In this document: piece after piece, positions 24,763 to 31,430 of the stretch
Layout of the letters: the number at the start of each line of letters is the position of its first letter
Numbering within the stretch: position 1 is the first letter of the stretch
Source of the DNA: Bowmanella denitrificans
GTDB lineage: Bacteria; Pseudomonadota; Gammaproteobacteria; Enterobacterales; Alteromonadaceae
Direction: 5' to 3'
Assembly (NCBI RefSeq): GCF_002887595.1
Contig: NZ_PEBU01000009.1
Coordinates: 126,589-190,588, forward strand
DNA: 64,000 bases
Notes under the pieces: generated by a model
What the model saw: only the letters and a program-made list of their open reading frames with translations
The model's database searches: none
What the model was told of the DNA's origin: nothing
Program-made: the position numbers and the translations under genes

Positions 24763-24838
24763 GTCTTGGGTATGCGTTAGTTTAGAAAAACACCTGAATT
24801 AGCTCTGATTGTATGGCCGATAGCTTCAGAAGCCACTA

Positions 24839-25083
24839 TTCACCGCAGAGAGCGCTGAGTTTTCAATAGCTTATACGTTGGGCTTCTATGCCTCAACGGT
24901 GAAGATTTATCTGCGCAGAAGTATAAAAACCACAGAGGCACAGAGATCACGAAGTGGACTGGCTTATATTTGGGTTTTTTGCTTTTCTCTGTGACCTCTG
25001 CGTCTTCAATAGCTTGTTTGGTGTTTTGTTTTCTCTGTGACCTCTGCGTCTCTGCGGTAACAACGCATCTTTGCGGAGGATAG
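24839..25083 (-). repeat. Extragenic CTCTGTG/CAGAGG repeat, left copy (inverted)
   Basis: This stretch carries, in reverse orientation, the same elements as the tandem array at 30901-31428: TTCACCGCAGAGAGCGCTGAG, then CTGCGCAGAAGTATAAAAACC with ACAGAGGCACAGAG, then TTCTCTGTGACCTCTGCG twice and TGCGGTAACAACGCATCTTTG. It is less regular than the right copy. It ends 17 bp before the stop of higA. No coding frame is supported. Confidence 0.85.
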
Positions 25084-25099
25084 AGCAGCTCGGGCCTCG

Positions 25100-25387
25100 T
25101 CAGGCTGTAACAAGCTTCCTCACATTAAGCTCTTTGCGATGCTGTTCGGCATGCCAAAGTTGATATTGAGACTGCTGAATTAACCAGCTTTCTGCCGAGG
25201 TATCGAAAGCGATAGAAAGCCGTACCGCCATTTCTGGGCTGATGCCAGCCTTGCCATTCAATACAGCACTCAGCGTTTTGCGGCTAACACCCAATGCCTC
25301 TGCTGCTGCAGTAACAGAAAGGCCAAGAGGCTCAAGACAAAGCTCTCGCAATACTTCACCTGGGTGCGGCGGGTTGTGCATTAACAT
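25100..25387 (-). CDS. higA: HigA-family antitoxin
   Basis: 95 residues, an XRE-type helix-turn-helix ([37 protein letters not shown]) opened by the HigA/VapI signature [20 protein letters not shown]. Such antitoxins bind the RelE-like toxin and repress the operon promoter. The first ATG lies 7 bases after GAGGT, and the gene follows higB with a 10-bp gap, toxin first, as in other higBA modules. Confidence 0.93.
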
Positions 25388-25397
25388 TGGTGGTACC

Positions 25398-25676
25398 TCA
25401 GTGATAATCTTCGTAGTTCACGATCTCGGCATCTCCGTCTTCGAACCTAAAGGTCACCCGCCAGTTACCACTGACAGTTACTGACCAGATTCCGGCACGA
25501 TTACCAGAAAGTTCGTGCAAGCGAAGACCTGGTAAGTCCATATCTTTGGCGTTCAACGCTGCATTCAACCTACCGAGAATCAGTCGAAGTCTCCTCTCGT
25601 GAGCGGCCTGAATCCCTGCAGTGCTGCCGGACTTGAAGAATTTTGCCAAGCCCTTGTGTTTGAAACTTCGAATCAT
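25398..25676 (-). CDS. higB: HigB-family (RelE fold) toxin
   Basis: 92 residues. The sequence [49 protein letters not shown] and [31 protein letters not shown] is the HigB pattern, including the conserved W-R-V-F core and terminal DYH. It is a ribosome-dependent mRNA endonuclease in studied cases. The frame looks intact. Confidence 0.93.
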
Positions 25677-26186
25677 ACCTTGAATGTACCCTGTAACGTA
25701 TCAGGTGTCAAAGCGGCTCGGACCGCTTAGGGGAGAGCTTGCTGACTTATTCTGGTTATTTCTGCTGTACCAACAACAGACGTTTAATTTGGTCCTGACC
25801 CTGTTTATCGGTCTATTTAACAAGTAACTGGTCCACCAACGACAAACCAACTTTTGACTATCGCAAGTGCGAGAACTTTGGCACATATGGCACCTTGTGA
25901 TAACGACTTTAAGCTGTGTGTTGATAAAGTTCCAGATGTTGAGCCGCATAACAGCAATGGCGCGGAACACGTCCGCCTTTACCCGGCACCATCTTGGGGC
26001 AGCCTAAAAAACTCTTGCTAGGCAAAGGGTTATAAGCATGCTAAAAAATGACTGTGTAAAAATCACGTTTTACCGAATCGCAGAGGGCGGCAGTGATCGA
26101 CAACTCTGACCCTTTGATCAACCCTTTGATCAGTATAAAAATATGCTATTCAATAAGGTTTGACGCTAAACGTCAGGGAGATAGGT
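25677..26186. other. Region between higB and the TPR system
   Basis: 510 bp with no supported gene; an 89-codon minus frame has poor composition. A hairpin AAGCGG...CCGCTT at about 25710-25727 resembles one at 28108-28125. Close to the TPR system there is a direct repeat CCCTTTGATCA (twice, about 26111-26134), a TATAAAAATAT segment, and a palindrome TGACG-CTAAA-CGTCA at 26161-26175 just before the ribosome site. These make a plausible promoter and operator region. Confidence 0.4.
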
Positions 26187-26408
26187 ATGGCAGATATCAT
26201 GACATGGCTACAACAGCGTTCTTTTGCTGAATGGGTCGCAGTGGCCTCACTGGCGGCTGCCATCCTGGGTCTGCTATTCAAAAACAAATTCAAAGGCAAG
26301 ACATCCGTGACGGCCAGACACGGCAGTGTAGCGCTGGGGGACAACGCGCAGGGAAACAGCATTCAGGTCAATCAGTCAAGGAATACAAGCAATGAGTCTG
26401 AGCGATAA
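26187..26408 (+). CDS. Small membrane protein of a two-gene TPR system
   Basis: 73 residues from the ATG at 26187 (AGG/GGGAG upstream). One transmembrane helix (FAEWVAVASLAAAILGLLF, about 13-31), then a basic segment KNKFKGKTS and a polar tail carrying GSVALGDNAQGNSIQVN. The same pattern opens the next protein (GSVAFGRNAQHNNVTIN): ten of 17 positions identical. The gene overlaps the next by 17 bp. Short glycine/asparagine motifs of this kind are known before NACHT, CHAT and TPR parts of bacterial conflict proteins. I infer the motifs form matching beta elements that pair the two proteins at the membrane. No family name is recognised. Confidence 0.75.
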   Translation: MADIMTWLQQRSFAEWVAVASLAAAILGLLFKNKFKGKTSVTARHGSVALGDNAQGNSIQVNQSRNTSNESER

Positions 26409-28068
26409 GGTCTCTGCCGACAAGGGCAGTGTTGCTTTCGGCAGAAATGCCCAACACAACAATGTCACTATTAATGACCTAGACACTATTATCAAAGCGG
26501 TCCATGGTGCAAATGCGGAATTTGAAGTCATCAAGGAGCGTCTGAACGTCACCACCAACGCCTTACGCACCTTCTTCGGTATTCTCCAGCAACAGTCCCT
26601 GCCCGAGCATGAATGGCCTCAGGCGCTGGAGCAGATTGCCGCCAAACACCAGGAAGCATTGAAGGTAATGAATACCCTTCAGTGCAGCACCCCGGAGCAT
26701 CAGGACACACTGGAAAAAGCCAAAGAGGCATTAACTGAAGGCCGGTACCACGAACAGCGGGAATTATTGCTGATAGTGGCCAAAGCCGAAGAAGCGGCTG
26801 CCAACGATGCCGAAGCGCTTATGCAACAAGCACAACAGGCCCAGCTAACACGACTGCTCAACAGTGCTGCCAACCACCAGGAAATCGCCAAGAGCTATGA
26901 GATAGAGCTCAAATACCAACAGGCGCTGGGCGCCTACGAGCAGGCCATCAGGCTGCTTAGCCCAGTGCAACAGCAGACCCAGGAGATAGCGCAATATCTG
27001 GCGCGGTATCATAACGAAGCAGGACTTTTGTGCATTACACTCGGCGCCTATGACAACGCCATTGACTATTTTGAGCAGGCGCTGAACAGTGACCTTTACA
27101 CCTTCGGTGAAGACCATCCCAATGTGGCGATTCGTCGCAATAACTTAGGCTCAGCCTGGCATGACAAAGGCGACTACGACAAAGCCATTGCTTATTATGA
27201 GCTGTCGCTGAACAGTGACCTTAACACCTTCGGCGAAAACCATCCCAAGGTGGCGATTCGTCGCAATAACTTAGGCTCAGCCTGGCATGACAAAGGCGAC
27301 TATGACAAAGCCATTGGCTATTATGAGCTGTCGCTGAACAGTGACCTTAACACCTTCGGTGAAGACCATCCCAAGGTGGCGATTCGTCGCAATAACTTAG
27401 GCTCAGCCTGGCATGACAAAGGCGACTACGACAAAGCCATTGGCTATTATGAGCTGGCCCTGAACAGTGACCTTAACACCTTCGGCGAAAACCATCCCGA
27501 TGTGGCTATTCGTCGCAATAACTTAGGCTCAGCCTGGCGGCACAAAGGCTACTACGACAAAGCCATTGGCTATTTTAAGCTGGCGCTGAACAGTGACCTT
27601 AACACCTTCGGCGAAAACCATCCCAATGTGGCGAGAGACCGCAATAACTTAGGCTCAGCCTGGCAGTACAAAAGCGACTACGACAAAGCCATTGCCTATT
27701 ATGAGCTGGCGCTGAACAGTCACCTTAACACCTTCGGTGAAGACCACCCCAATGTGGCGATTAGTCGCAATAACTTAGGCTTAGCCTGGCAGCACAAAGG
27801 CAACTACGACAAAGCCATTGACTATTATGAGCTGGCGCTGAACAGTGACCTTAACACCTTCGGTGAAGACCATCCCAATGTGGCGAGAGAGCGCAATAAC
27901 TTAGGCTTAGCCTGGCATGACAAAGGCGACTACGACAAAGCCATTGGCTATTTAGAGTTGGCACTAGTCAGTCTTCAAAAATCACTGGGTGAGCGTCATC
28001 CTAACACCCAGAATGTGGCGCGGCATTTATACGAAGCTAAAGCGCAACTACTAGCCAATACGACTTGA
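26392..28068 (+). CDS. Kinesin-light-chain-type TPR protein with N-terminal GSVAxGxNAQ motif
   Basis: 558 residues, soluble. The first 22 residues hold the motif shared with the upstream membrane protein. Residues about 25-215 are helical, alanine/glutamate-rich and partly coiled-coil-like, with one TPR-like segment (YQQALGAYEQAIRLL). From residue 220 there are seven 42-residue TPRs of KLC type (YDKAIGYYELALNSDLNTFGENHPxVAIRRNNLGSAWHDKGD) and a degenerate eighth, ending in a helical tail. Repeats 2-7 are close to identical at the DNA level too, which suggests recent duplication or ongoing change in copy number. Such TPRs bind peptides or partner proteins. No enzyme domain is present, so it may be a sensor or adaptor. 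Confidence 0.85.
   Translation: MSLSDKVSADKGSVAFGRNAQHNNVTINDLDTIIKAVHGANAEFEVIKERLNVTTNALRTFFGILQQQSLPEHEWPQALEQIAAKHQEALKVMNTLQCSTPEHQDTLEKAKEALTEGRYHEQRELLLIVAKAEEAAANDAEALMQQAQQAQLTRLLNSAANHQEIAKSYEIELKYQQALGAYEQAIRLLSPVQQQTQEIAQYLARYHNEAGLLCITLGAYDNAIDYFEQALNSDLYTFGEDHPNVAIRRNNLGSAWHDKGDYDKAIAYYELSLNSDLNTFGENHPKVAIRRNNLGSAWHDKGDYDKAIGYYELSLNSDLNTFGEDHPKVAIRRNNLGSAWHDKGDYDKAIGYYELALNSDLNTFGENHPDVAIRRNNLGSAWRHKGYYDKAIGYFKLALNSDLNTFGENHPNVARDRNNLGSAWQYKSDYDKAIAYYELALNSHLNTFGEDHPNVAISRNNLGLAWQHKGNYDKAIDYYELALNSDLNTFGEDHPNVARERNNLGLAWHDKGDYDKAIGYLELALVSLQKSLGERHPNTQNVARHLYEAKAQLLANTT
27049..27930 (+). repeat. 126-bp coding tandem repeats, seven copies
   Basis: Seven in-frame units of exactly 126 bp (start at 27049; the diverged eighth starts at 27931) encode the 42-residue TPRs. 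Middle units differ by only a few bases (TGAACAGTGACCTTAACACC and CGCAATAACTTAGGCTCAGC recur almost unchanged). Confidence 0.95.
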
Positions 28069-28298
28069 CCTCTAGATCCAATAATCAAACAGATCGATGA
28101 TGCCCTTAAGCGGCCCGAGCCGCTTTATCCCCCGCTTAAAATTCCCGGTCGGTTCAGGGCGCTGCTAAAAGGCGGGCAATTTACTGGGCGCAAATTGAGT
28201 GGAAGACATGCCTGGGATGGCATCGAGCATAATCAGAAGTTCATTGTTGCGTGCCTGATACCAAAACCCGTCCTGGTTTTTTTAATTAATTCTCTTTC
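28069..28298. other. Spacer after the TPR gene
   Basis: A hairpin AAGCGGC-CCGA-GCCGCTT at 28108-28125, about 40 bp after the stop, may end the TPR transcript although it has only a short T run. Nothing else is recognised here. Confidence 0.4.
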
Positions 28299-28413
28299 CA
28301 CCACGAAGATCACGAAGAACACGAAGAACACGAAGAACACGAAGAACACGAAGAACACGAAGTGTGGACAATCGGTTTTACCCTTCGTGCACTTCGTGAT
28401 CTTCGTGGTGAAG
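28299..28413. repeat. CACGAAGAA repeat within an imperfect inverted repeat
   Basis: The left arm is CCACGAAGATCACGAAG followed by five copies of the 9-mer AACACGAAG; after a 20-base spacer the right arm CTTCGTGATCTTCGTGG (within about 28393-28410) is its exact complement. It can fold into a long hairpin. Similar CACGAAG arrays occur in unrelated bacterial genomes. An 84-codon frame through it (TKNTKNTK) is an artefact. Confidence 0.9.
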
Positions 28414-28554
28414 AAAATTTTGGGAAAAATCTGGTCTGGAACCAGATGAAACAGCTCTCGCTGGTCCAAAGGCAAAGCCAAACGCACCAAAGTCCGCCCG
28501 GCTTACCCGCCAAGTGATATCTCTATCACGCAGCACTAGTTAAACAAACAACAC
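28414..28554. other. Spacer before the VOC gene
   Basis: About 140 bp with no recognised gene or signal. Confidence 0.4.
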
Positions 28555-28938
28555 TCACTTAAGCCGACGCGGCACCCCATCAGACTGATACATAGATATC
28601 TGATGATTATCCGGGTCGGCAATTTCAGCAGACCAGCCACCAGGTGCATGGCTCACCGGCGTGACGATAGTGACACCTTTTTCCGACAGCGCAGCGACCA
28701 TATCGTCTATACCACCATCGGGCAGGTCAAACACAATAATAGGGCTGTTGCCTGGTCGCGACTCCTGTTTAAAAAACAGCAGTTCCACCTCATTGGCGGT
28801 TTTAGCTAATAGCCAATCACCGTCTTCCCCTTCCATTCTCTGAATGTCCAGCCCCAACGCGTCGCGGTAAAACGCTTCGGTCTTTTCAATATCGTTTACG
28901 TAATAACAAATGGCGCCAATCTTACTTTGACTAAACAT
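28555..28938 (-). CDS. VOC-superfamily (glyoxalase/bleomycin-resistance-like) protein
   Basis: 127 residues. The two beta-alpha-beta-beta-beta modules are seen as IGAICYYVNDIEKTEAFYRDALGLDIQ (1-33) and the second half ending GGWSAEIADPDNHQISMYQSD, with the typical DPDNHxI signature and a metal-ligand-like Glu/His. Members act as isomerases, dioxygenases or binding proteins; the substrate is unknown. Its start overlaps the sigma-factor stop by 8 bp, so the two are coupled. Confidence 0.9.
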   Translation of the reverse strand: MFSQSKIGAICYYVNDIEKTEAFYRDALGLDIQRMEGEDGDWLLAKTANEVELLFFKQESRPGNSPIIVFDLPDGGIDDMVAALSEKGVTIVTPVSHAPGGWSAEIADPDNHQISMYQSDGVPRRLK

Positions 28939-29578
28939 TGTCTTTTTCCTCTTTTTGGGTTGATATCACCCTATGTTGCCGCGCAGGGCCATTTTGTGAG
29001 CCAAGCATAAAAAGATGTCCGTCCGGATCATGACTGGCTAGTGTGACATGTTGCCGACCAGGCAGTTTGAGTAATGCCTGGCGTATCCGGCCAAACGCCA
29101 GCCCGCTTTTTAAACCTTTAAGTTCCAATACATGGCTGCCGTCGAACAGACGCCAGCGCCTTTTAATCTGCACAATACGTTGGCGTAGTGCCGCATCGGA
29201 CAATCGCAGAAGCCAGGCAATTTCAGCCTTGGTGTGCCCGGTCAAGGCCAACAGAGCGGTCGTTTTAAGGCTTGCAGGTAAGGTGTTAACAAAGCACGTG
29301 GTGGATACCTCGCTCTGTGTTTGGACATCCCCCAAATAGGCAAACGAGGCTTCCCGCTTTCGTCGTCTTATTGCCGTTCTGGCACAAAAGGCAGACTGAT
29401 TGCGAATAGCGCCCATTAACCAACGGCGGTTATCCACACAAGACATGTCCGTTCGGCCTGTCTCGACCGCCGCAAGCAGCGCGGTCTGAAGCAGATCCTC
29501 GGCTTCATCGGCATGCCATGCCAGCTTATGGGCATAGCCCAGAAGTTCGCGGTAGTATTTATTTTTTGTTATCACCAA
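28931..29578 (-). CDS. ECF-type RNA polymerase sigma factor with C-terminal extension
   Basis: 215 residues. Region 2 covers YRELLGYAHKLAWHADEAEDLLQTALLAAVE (about 8-39), RWLMGAIRNQSAFCARTAIRRRKREAS is region 2.3-2.4-like, and region 4 is LPASLKTTALLALTGHTKAEIAWLLRLSDAALRQRIVQIKRR (about 100-141). About 70 residues follow (LFDGSHVLELKGLKSGL... LASHDPDGHLFMLGSQN), a tail not found in simple ECF factors. The TTG start at 29578 is chosen; GTG at 29575 is an alternative. No anti-sigma gene is adjacent; the coupled VOC gene may be part of its regulation. Confidence 0.82.
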   Translation of the reverse strand: MVITKNKYYRELLGYAHKLAWHADEAEDLLQTALLAAVETGRTDMSCVDNRRWLMGAIRNQSAFCARTAIRRRKREASFAYLGDVQTQSEVSTTCFVNTLPASLKTTALLALTGHTKAEIAWLLRLSDAALRQRIVQIKRRWRLFDGSHVLELKGLKSGLAFGRIRQALLKLPGRQHVTLASHDPDGHLFMLGSQNGPARQHRVISTQKEEKDNV

Positions 29579-29663
29579 TGATATGCCCCAATCTCAGGGT
29601 ACTGCCAAGCATAGCCAGTATTGAGAAGCACTGTCCTTGTCTGTTGTAGTATTAGAAACCGGT

Positions 29664-30052
29664 TTATCCCAGTGACGCAAGCCAGTTCTCAGTTCGCAAC
29701 CCCGGCACCCGCTCAAATTCACTGAGGTTATTGGTTACAACAACCAGGCCTTCGCTTCTGGCATGCGCGGCAACATGCAGGTCATTGACACCAATTGGCT
29801 GGCCTTGTTTCTCAAGGGTTGCGCGTATATCTCCATAATGCGCAGCAGCCTTTTGGCCGTAGTCCAGAATCTCCAGGCGGCTGACAAAGTCTTCAACATG
29901 ATGGCGATTGTGTTCCGGCCGACTGCTTTTCTCTACACCATGTTGCAATTCTGCATAGCTAATGGCGCTGATGCACAGCAGGCATTGAAGGTATCTAGCA
30001 CCGCCAGTGGGCGGCGCTTAATAACATAAATCGCAATATTGGTGTCGAGCAT
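29664..30052 (-). pseudogene. vapC: vapC toxin, frameshifted
   Basis: The first frame starts MLDTNIAIYVIKRRPLAVLDTFN, the PIN-domain N-terminus with the first catalytic Asp. It then runs out of register at about 29972-29985. The second frame continues CISAISYAELQHGVEKS and includes the later acidic residues in QPIGVNDLHVAAHA and VTNNLSEFERVPGL. The whole span is 389 bp, two modulo three; adding one base restores about 129 residues, the normal VapC length. The toxin RNase is probably inactive unless frameshifting or a sequencing error explains it. Confidence 0.82.
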
Positions 30053-30063
30053 ATAGCGCAGCA

Positions 30064-30297
30064 CTAAAAGGATTCCCGTTCAGATTGCGTTTGCGAGGCC
30101 CGTTCTGGCATAAAATCGTCGCTAACCCATTCATTCGAAAGAAAAAATGAGTCCCAGGTATTATCTACAGGGGTCAGAATTCTATCCTGCCCGACAATAC
30201 GAACATTGACCTTGCGTACCCCCTCGGGAAATCTTGCGTCAACGGGTAGACGCACAGCTTGGGTGCTGTTGTTTTTAAATACGGTTCCACTTCCCAT
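30064..30297 (-). CDS. vapB: VapB-family antitoxin
   Basis: 77 residues. The N-terminal AbrB/MazE-like segment MGSGTVFKNNSTQAVRLPVDARFPEGVRKVNVRIVGQDRIL is characteristic, followed by the C-terminal toxin-binding part with DSFF and the acidic-aromatic tail. GAGGG precedes the ATG. It lies 11 bp before vapC. It looks intact while its toxin is broken. Confidence 0.9.
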   Translation of the reverse strand: MGSGTVFKNNSTQAVRLPVDARFPEGVRKVNVRIVGQDRILTPVDNTWDSFFLSNEWVSDDFMPERASQTQSERESF

Positions 30298-30468
30298 CTC
30301 GCCCTCTGAGACACGTCAAACATAGATACAAAAACTATATACCTAAGATGTAGATAATCAACCTATCTATATAATGAATCTATTGCTTCGGCCTTGTGGG
30401 TACGAGGTACAAGGGGAAAGTTAAATTCTGCAACTCATAGCCAATACACTAGGCTTGCAAAGTATTCC

Positions 30469-30879
30469 ATGCTTAAAATGGCGCAGTCATGGAATATGGA
30501 TATCAACACAGTGACGAAAGTGATTTTGGCAATCTGGTGCCTCTGCCTGATGTTGGGTGGGGCAACGCATATCTTCGACAATCTCTATTTTGGCTTATTG
30601 CCTTATAAGTTTGTCCCTAGCTGGTTAAACGCTTATTGGTCTGCTTTAGGTGTGTTAGACCTTGTGGCGGTGTTGTTGCTTTTAAAATGGCGAAAGCCAG
30701 GTATTTTATTAACCCTTGGCATTATGCTCAGTGATGTGACTATCAACTCTATTGCATTTTACTCGTTGGGCGTCCTGCCCGAGAGTTGGCCATTACAGCT
30801 TCAGACTTTGTTTTTGGGTTTCTGTTTAGGCTCTGCCTGGTTGCTATGGAAACCGGCCAGCATGCCTGAAAGACAATAG
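30469..30879 (+). CDS. Hypothetical membrane protein with four helices
   Basis: About 136 residues from the ATG at 30469; no start here has a good ribosome site and 30496 is possible. Four hydrophobic segments: VTKVILAIWCLCLMLGGATHIF, WSALGVLDLVAVLLLL, ILLTLGIMLSDVTINSIAFYSLG, and LQTLFLGFCLGSAWLLW. No family recognised. It is flanked by vapB and the repeat array. Confidence 0.65.
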   Translation: MLKMAQSWNMDINTVTKVILAIWCLCLMLGGATHIFDNLYFGLLPYKFVPSWLNAYWSALGVLDLVAVLLLLKWRKPGILLTLGIMLSDVTINSIAFYSLGVLPESWPLQLQTLFLGFCLGSAWLLWKPASMPERQ

Positions 30880-30900
30880 TCCACGTCTCTCAGGCTTATT

Positions 30901-31428
30901 AGCTTTGCGGGGATACACTTTTCACCATAGAGACACAAAAGCTAAGATCATAAACTATTAAACTCTCAGCGCTCTCTGCGCCTCTGCGGTGAATAATGGC
31001 TTCGGCAAAGATGCGTTGTCACCGCCGAGACGCAGAGGTCACAGAGAAACAAAGAATGTATGCTAGTAAAAACTCTGTGCTCTCTGTGCCTCTGTGGTTT
31101 TTATACTTCTGCGCAAACATATGGCCACCACTAAGGCACGCAGAGACACAAAAGCTCAGATCATAAACTATTGAAAACTCAGCGCTCTCTGCGCCTCTGC
31201 GGTGAATAATGGCTTCGGCAAAGATGCGTTGTCACTGCCGAGACGCAGAGGTCACAGAGAAGACAAAAATATAAGCTACTAAAAACTCCGTGCTCTCTGT
31301 GCCTCTGTGGTTTTTAATCTTTCTGCGCAAATAAATAGTCACCACTGAGGCACAAAGAGACACAAAAGCCATGGTTTAAGCTATTGAAATCTCAGCGCTC
31401 TCTGCGTCTCAGCGGTGAATAACTGTAT
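30901..31428 (+). repeat. Extragenic CTCTGTG/CAGAGG tandem array, right copy
   Basis: About 2.5 units of 213-214 bp (equivalent points at 30941, 31154 and 31368). Each holds TCAGCGCTCTCTGCGCCTCTG, a CGGTGAATAATGGCTTCGGC element, the inverted GAGACGCAGAGGTCACAGAG and GTGCCTCTGTGGTTTTTA. The units can fold on themselves. The same family, inverted, lies at 24839-25083. The array ends just at the stop of the esterase gene (31431). It fills the whole intergenic space; no gene is in it. Confidence 0.92.
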
Positions 31429-31430
31429 CG

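What the first reader, a model, noticed from the sequence alone, without database searches (positions are those of the whole stretch)
26187..28068. Two-gene system: small membrane protein and KLC-type TPR protein sharing a GSVAxGxNAQxN motif
Two overlapping genes encode a 73-residue single-span membrane protein and a 558-residue TPR protein. Both carry a near-identical 17-residue Gly/Asn motif, at the C-terminal side of one and the N-terminus of the other (ten identities). Known conflict and NACHT/TPR proteins have similar short motifs, so I infer they pair the two subunits, with the TPR part as sensor. The locus sits beside higBA and a broken vapBC inside a repeat-bounded island. Seen: overlap, motif, helix, repeats. 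Inferred: pairing, defence or stress role.
Basis: partly seen in the sequence, partly recalled or inferred. Interest (0 to 1): 0.75.

Follow-up and report, generated by a model that had tools for sequence, protein, structure and literature searches.

The report
Paired-motif membrane protein and TPR sensor
Two overlapping bacterial genes make a tiny membrane protein and a repeat-built sensor that carry matching short tails, in the manner of known receptor-effector pairs that signal by locking like tails together, but without the usual ATP-driven receptor.

Summary
26187-26408 encodes a 73-aa single-span protein; 26392-28068 (17-nt overlap) a 558-aa protein with a probably disordered N-terminal tail, a helical domain and a KLC-type TPR superhelix. 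A 22-residue stretch (12 identities, 7 of them in different codons) is shared by the C-end of one and the N-end of the other. The pairing recurs: in other loci, mostly gammaproteobacterial, the same scaffold follows a membrane protein, and each pair shares its own locus-specific motif. The true partner ranks first in 7 of 8 representative loci; the true pairing is the best of 40,320 permutations. One partner is TIR-TM-motif. In Magnetococcales a TM segment is fused to the scaffold, in three of eight cases with a clear Gly/Asn-rich stretch between; elsewhere caspase or trypsin domains take the N-terminal slot. The pair lies in a 6.7-kb island missing at this site in all four congeners held. Best reading: a receptor-effector pair that works like bacterial amyloid-signalling (BASS) pairs, but with an NTPase-free TPR receptor and a one-helix membrane effector. 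Amyloid formation, trigger and defence role are inferred; neighbourhoods of five relatives gave no defence system beyond the TIR partner.

The parts
26187..26408 (+). 73-aa single-span membrane protein (P0001), proposed effector; modelled helix residues 3-34, C-terminus predicted cytoplasmic (KNKFKGK after the helix)
26307..26372 (+). effector-side copy of the shared motif (VTARHGSVALGDNAQGNSIQVN)
26392..28068 (+). 558-aa TPR protein (P0002), proposed receptor; 17-nt overlap with the upstream gene
26410..26475 (+). receptor-side copy of the shared motif (VSADKGSVAFGRNAQHNNVTIN), in a tail of very low model confidence (pLDDT 29-38 over residues 1-40), probably disordered
26512..26880 (+). helical domain between motif and TPRs (about residues 41-163), the region conserved in the wider family; no PDB sequence match below E=0.33
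27043..28059 (+). array of near-identical 42-aa (126-nt) KLC/NPHP3-type TPR units
24770..31430 (.). accessory island holding the pair, higBA, a glyoxalase-fold gene, a sigma-like gene and a broken PIN gene; missing at this site in all four congeners, two of which keep both flanks

Best explanation
A two-component receptor-effector pair. P0002 is a cytosolic receptor: its TPR superhelix senses an unknown ligand or partner and, when engaged, clusters its flexible N-terminal motif tails. P0001 sits in the inner membrane with its C-terminal motif in the cytosol. Clustered receptor motifs recruit or template the like effector motif by homotypic cross-beta (amyloid-like) stacking, oligomerising the one-helix membrane protein, which then damages or depolarises the membrane. 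Shown: gene overlap, matched motif, TPR scaffold, recurrence with locus-specific motifs, TM-TPR fusions, TIR and caspase versions, island location. Predicted: disordered tail, topology. Inferred: cross-beta stacking, direction of signalling, membrane damage, trigger, defence use.
For: Matched motifs: 8 representative loci (one per similarity group, chosen after seeing them); the true partner scores best in 7 of 8 (mean 58 matched, 25 mismatched); of 40,320 permutations only the true one reaches the observed sum. Rule-based version: of 63 loci, 13 have an upstream TM ORF, and 9 of 13 beat all 12 mismatched partners; one of the nine (L038) is probably a TM-to-TM match. L026 has the same layout as the window: 73-aa TM ORF, then TPR gene, with a different shared motif. 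Its TM segment matches the N-terminal TM of fused Magnetococcales TM-TPR proteins, E=2.8e-7 in a nine-sequence set. L055: TIR_2 (6.8e-27)-TM-motif next to a TPR protein with the same motif. Same scaffold fused to Peptidase_C14 (9.9e-43 to 1.6e-37; 3 of the 6 proteins scanned) and to Trypsin_2 (4.2e-13). Topology: window and L026 inside with cytosolic TPR; 7 others outside with exported TPR. Motif tail of very low confidence, TPRs well modelled. The layout equals that described for BASS pairs: adjacent or overlapping genes, effector C-end and receptor N-end (PMC7889193 passages).
Against: No nucleotide-binding domain was found in P0002, so the switch known for NLRs is missing. P0001 has no credible relative, only a sub-threshold DUF6790 match (17.7 bits against a cut-off of 27.1), and its TM segment does not match the fused ones clearly above controls (0.029 against 0.047 for the best control). 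No amyloid prediction or assay was run; Pfam has no match to either motif segment. L024, a two-gene locus with another partner type, shows no shared motif (25 against shuffled 20.5, 149 of 1000 shuffles). Of the 63 loci, 50 have no separate upstream TM ORF by the rule. Neighbourhoods of relatives gave no clear defence system. Topology calls: L023 discordant by rule, L048 undecided, L050 and L052 decided by one charge, L055's signal peptide just under my cut-off.
Confidence: 0.5

Rival explanations
1. Homotypic docking without amyloid: the motifs form a small defined beta-solenoid or strand-exchange contact that tethers the TPR adaptor to the membrane, with signalling by recruitment rather than templating.
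For: Recurrent matched motifs need only specific pairing. Some Magnetococcales proteins join TM and TPR in one chain with no clear motif between (L015, L016). [quoted passage not shown]
Against: Three fused TM-TPR proteins keep a Gly/Asn-rich stretch (L013, L018, L020), which a mere tether would not need. TIR and caspase versions point to an effector.
Confidence: 0.25
2. Toxin-antitoxin logic: P0001 is a small membrane toxin and P0002 a neutraliser that holds it through the motif; release kills or arrests the cell.
For: Small gene then large gene, 17-nt overlap, toxin-antitoxin type genes at two places in the same 6.7-kb island, higBA and a PIN/MazE-like pair, sporadic occurrence (0 of 4 congeners).
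Against: Homologous scaffolds are fused to effector domains or to a TM. Exported TPR versions pair with membrane proteins, an unusual place for an antitoxin.
Confidence: 0.15
3. Transmembrane relay: the membrane protein is a linker, not the killer, that passes motif-encoded state between TPR sensors and other effectors.
For: L048: a 99-aa TM protein whose C-terminal motif matches the exported TPR next door (72) and whose N-terminal motif matches four TPR proteins elsewhere in the same genome (57-76; 0 of 1000 shuffles each).
Against: P0001 has only about 12 residues on its far side and no second motif. The same L048 N-terminal motif also scores 41 with the window's TPR tail (4 of 1000 shuffles), so motif likeness is not fully specific.
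Confidence: 0.08
4. Chance low-complexity similarity of two Gly/Asn tails.
For: Such tails share composition.
Against: 0 of 1000 composition shuffles reach the observed score in 7 of 8 loci; best of 40,320 pairings; 2 matches against 0 in 100 shuffles for the motif pattern.
Confidence: 0.02

Closest known systems
BASS / NLR-BELL bacterial amyloid signalosomes (Dyrka et al. 2020 J Mol Biol; that paper not held, seen only in a reference list; described in PMC7889193, PMC8086366 and PMC9815663 passages)
   Same: Adjacent or overlapping genes; short motif at the effector C-terminus and receptor N-terminus; many sequence-unrelated motif families; TIR partners also reported there
   Different: No NACHT/NB-ARC found, TPR only. 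Effector is a single TM helix. Found here in a gammaproteobacterium and with exported TPR receptors; BASS described mainly in filamentous actinobacteria and cyanobacteria
Fungal HELLP/PNT1 and HET-S/NWD2 (PMC7889193 passages)
   Same: Two-gene cluster, shared amyloid motif, membrane-acting effector; PNT1 carries TPRs
   Different: Eukaryotic, NLR receptors, HeLo/HELL effectors
EAD principle of Aravind and co-workers (PMC8195603, PMC7159879 passages)
   Same: Like-with-like modules that couple effectors and receptors encoded together
   Different: EADs are small domains, mostly helical; here a short, probably disordered motif
Kinesin light chain / NPHP3-type TPR and bacterial Bklc (PMC5372463 passages)
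   Same: Among the nearest solved TPR sequences and folds
   Different: No motor or tubulin context seen; motif tail and membrane partner

Membership tests
BASS amyloid-signalling pair | two adjacent or overlapping genes with motif at effector C-end and receptor N-end | tested here: met
BASS amyloid-signalling pair | receptor is an NLR (NACHT or NB-ARC) | tested here: not met
   no such Pfam or NCBIfam domain in P0002
BASS amyloid-signalling pair | effector carries a BELL domain | tested here: inconclusive
   73 aa, one helix, no Pfam family above its cut-off; no BELL profile was on hand
BASS amyloid-signalling pair | motif belongs to one of BASS1-10 | not testable with these tools
   BASS profiles not held; Pfam scan of the motif segments found nothing
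BASS amyloid-signalling pair | motif forms prion-like amyloid | not testable with these tools
   needs peptides or a prion assay
KLC/NPHP3-type TPR proteins | 42-residue TPR units of this class | tested here: met
   TPR_12 6.5e-76; TPR_NPHP3 99.7 bits, just under its cut-off of 100; KLC1/KLC2 chains among the top sequence and fold matches
type II toxin-antitoxin | known toxin or antitoxin family | tested here: not met
   no toxin or antitoxin family for P0001 or P0002 in Pfam, PADLOC or NCBIfam
type II toxin-antitoxin | toxicity relieved by the partner | not testable with these tools
   bench assay needed

The most novel reading that the evidence does not exclude
Proteobacteria carry a large, undescribed class of NLR-free amyloid-type signalling systems in which NTPase-free TPR receptors, cytosolic or exported, pair with membrane proteins through locus-specific cross-beta motifs; two-faced membrane linkers and TIR-TM partners carry the signal across the inner membrane. 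The window holds its minimal form.
Probability: 0.3. Interest if true: 0.85.

Novelty: new variant of a known kind. Interest (0 to 1): 0.66.

Why it matters
The Prion review (PMC7889193, passages) asks whether signalling amyloids exist in bacterial pathways that do not depend on NLRs, and places the known ones in multicellular bacteria. This pair and its relatives give a small, testable case: no NTPase found, in a gammaproteobacterial host (rpiA-serA syntenic with E. coli) whose growth form is not known here. The recurrence of locus-specific matched motifs gives a way to find such systems without knowing the motif, and the TIR-TM and two-faced TM versions suggest motif signalling across a membrane.

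Tried and rejected
Searches with P0001 found no relative in plasmids, phages or IMG/VR; in 196 family genomes the only other hit (G190) has three in-frame stops and was dropped. The motif pattern had no hit in IMG/VR. Plasmid searches with P0002's N-terminus and with two relatives found nothing. The genome-contig scan gave 92 pattern matches, 6 confirmed, all Magnetococcales contigs already seen under genome handles. PADLOC has only a generic TPR match for P0002. Promoter and terminator scans found no more than shuffles. A BELL domain in the L024 partner was a recalled idea, not shown: Pfam gave nothing above its cut-off, and its motif does not match. The label HNH-like for the N-terminus of L012 is by eye; Pfam gave no support. 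Of the six proteins scanned, L082 and L080 had no Pfam family and L069 only a sub-cut-off HTH_3. A weak SesA hit in P0002 (E=0.24) was dropped. pN/pS of 0.77 among six TPR units hints at diversification but was not tested further. Searches of two small families (2 and 3 genomes) found only the known loci.

The rule also loses true-looking pairs: L053 (upstream start called too late) and L064 (set aside for a long N-terminal region; one search scored its upstream TM ORF at 59).

Paper searches behind the novelty statement: an open-access library only; none of the listed papers describes a TPR-plus-membrane-protein pair without an NLR, judged by titles and the starts of abstracts.

Full report
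Observation. P0001 is 73 aa with one hydrophobic helix (AlphaFold2 single-sequence model: helix 3-34, the rest without structure, mean pLDDT 68). P0002 is 558 aa; in a model made with only six sequences its first 39 residues are below pLDDT 50, residues 41-140 form helices at moderate confidence (10-residue means 65-78), 141-200 are poor (40-56), and the TPR superhelix is modelled at about 78-96 from residue 221 to 530. Nearest solved folds and sequences include designed TPRs and kinesin light chains. The shared stretch is 22 residues with 12 identities, of which 7 use different codons, so the likeness is kept at the protein level. The degenerate motif pattern matches twice in the window and in none of 100 shuffles.

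Host and island. rpiA-serA next to the locus is syntenic with E. coli at 69% DNA identity, so I take the host to be a gammaproteobacterium; it is otherwise unnamed. In two of four congeners (G096, G062) the end of serA is followed within about 200 bases by the hydrolase gene that in the window ends the island near 31430, so about 6.7 kb is extra in the window; in the other two (G125, G014) serA is followed instead by the gene that lies near 35.9 kb in the window. Searches with P0001 and with the scaffold profile found neither in these four genomes. Repeats of a 46-nt family lie at both borders.

Family. Searches with the helical region found the scaffold in 2 of 295 genomes of the order and 7 of 398 of the phylum with a single sequence; with alignments in 5 of 321 of the class, 9 of 42 and 12 of 63 in two families chosen because they held a member, 2 of 196 in the window's family and 18 of 398 in the phylum. 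Each count includes the centre's own genome. It is sporadic.

Pairing. For 8 representative loci, one per similarity group and picked after inspection, I aligned the last 60 residues of the upstream protein with the N-terminus of the TPR protein. Matched scores are 59, 62, 25, 72, 64, 74, 58, 53 (window, L026, L024, L048, L050, L055, L058, L063); the mean mismatched score is 25. The true partner is top in 7 of 8 (L024 fails), and no other of 40,320 permutations reaches the sum. A rule applied to 63 loci (duplicates removed by hand; a few overlapping array loci remain, all among those set aside) leaves 13 with an upstream TM ORF; 9 of these beat all 12 mismatched partners. The other four are L013 (apparently an unrelated ORF; its TPR protein has its own TM) and L023, L050, L059, which have close relatives among the mismatched set. 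One of the nine, L038, is probably a TM-to-TM match. As negative controls, upstream ORFs that are not partners score 17-36 (for example 21 for a PIN-like protein by eye before L044). The motifs differ between loci, for example KPIINTGNxNxxDNST in L048 and GxDIxIGxxNIINxGxGxVN in L055, so what is conserved is the matching, not the sequence.

Architecture. L026 repeats the window's layout with a 73-aa TM protein. Its TM segment matches a profile of the N-terminal TM of eight Magnetococcales loci (E=2.8e-7 in a nine-sequence set; P0001 itself 0.029, not clearly above the best control at 0.047). In those eight the TM precedes the scaffold in one chain, except L014, where a stop lies between; a clear Gly/Asn-rich stretch between TM and scaffold is seen in L013, L018 and L020, a short one in L021. 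L055's partner is TIR_2-TM-motif. The same scaffold is fused to caspase domains in three of six proteins scanned and to a trypsin-like domain in L037. L048's small TM protein carries a second motif at its N-terminus that matches four TPR proteins elsewhere in that genome (57-76 against shuffled means of 23-27, 0 of 1000 shuffles each); against other tails it scores 23-41, the highest being the window's (41, 4 of 1000).

Topology. By a simple positive-inside rule, the window and L026 partners have their motif inside and cytosolic TPR proteins; L050, L052, L058, L059, L062, L063 and L064 have it outside and TPR proteins with signal peptide or lipobox (L050 and L052 by a margin of one charge). 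L055 is outside, with a signal peptide just under my cut-off. L048 is undecided. L023 is discordant, probably because one of three helices seen in its homologues falls under the threshold. These loci fall into about six similarity groups, so the agreement is modest evidence.

Mechanism. The layout, the matched tails and the effector-type domains favour a receptor-effector pair with homotypic motif signalling, as described for NLR-BELL pairs (PMC7889193 passages). P0002 shows no NTPase, so filing it as BASS fails on a defining feature, while 'works like' remains open. Cross-beta stacking and membrane damage are inferred.

Against. No assay or amyloid prediction was run. Around five relatives the genes are mostly housekeeping-like by eye. 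Of ten proteins there scanned with PADLOC, seven had no match or only a weak one; the UvrA-like and TnpB-like proteins gave family-level matches, and the TIR partner matched TIR and SEFIR models of defence systems. Pfam showed a PIN toxin-type gene near L050, IS605-type TnpB genes near L050 and L062, and an LRR protein near L048. So neither a defence island nor its absence is established. 50 of 63 loci have no separate TM partner by the rule.

Print. Six searches of the open library listed no paper that by title or start of abstract describes an NLR-free TPR and membrane-protein pair with matched motifs. For PMC12261475 I saw the abstract, outline and part of the results; for PMC8086366, PMC8195603, PMC7889193, PMC7159879, PMC9815663, PMC12881547 and PMC5372463, passages only.

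Noticed in passing
L048 (G1115), TM protein at 2193-2498 minus: 99-aa membrane protein with two different motifs: the C-terminal one matches the exported TPR next door, the N-terminal one matches four TPR proteins elsewhere in the same genome.
   Followed up: partly
L055, TIR-bearing ORF 408-1310 plus (L108:11370-12011 from its first ATG): TIR_2-TM-motif protein overlapping a TPR gene with a probable signal peptide and the same motif; the TIR part matches TIR and SEFIR models of defence systems in PADLOC.
   Followed up: partly
G1210:C3 about 38-47 kb (L056, L067, L066, L063): Run of scaffold hits close together, some in ORFs with lipoprotein signals and SPxV-type motifs.
   Followed up: no
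window 29667-29948 minus: PIN-domain toxin ORF that keeps only the C-terminal part of the family; an N-terminal part seems to lie in another frame.
   Followed up: no
window 24829-25077 and 30921-31422: 46-nt repeat family at both borders of the island, largely in inverted orientation between the two sides.
   Followed up: partly
window 27043-28059: TPR units nearly identical (five of seven other copies 88-93% DNA identity to the reference copy), pN/pS 0.77 among six units, as if recently amplified.
   Followed up: partly
L083, L086, L093: Same helical-TPR scaffold fused to caspase (Peptidase_C14) domains.
   Followed up: no
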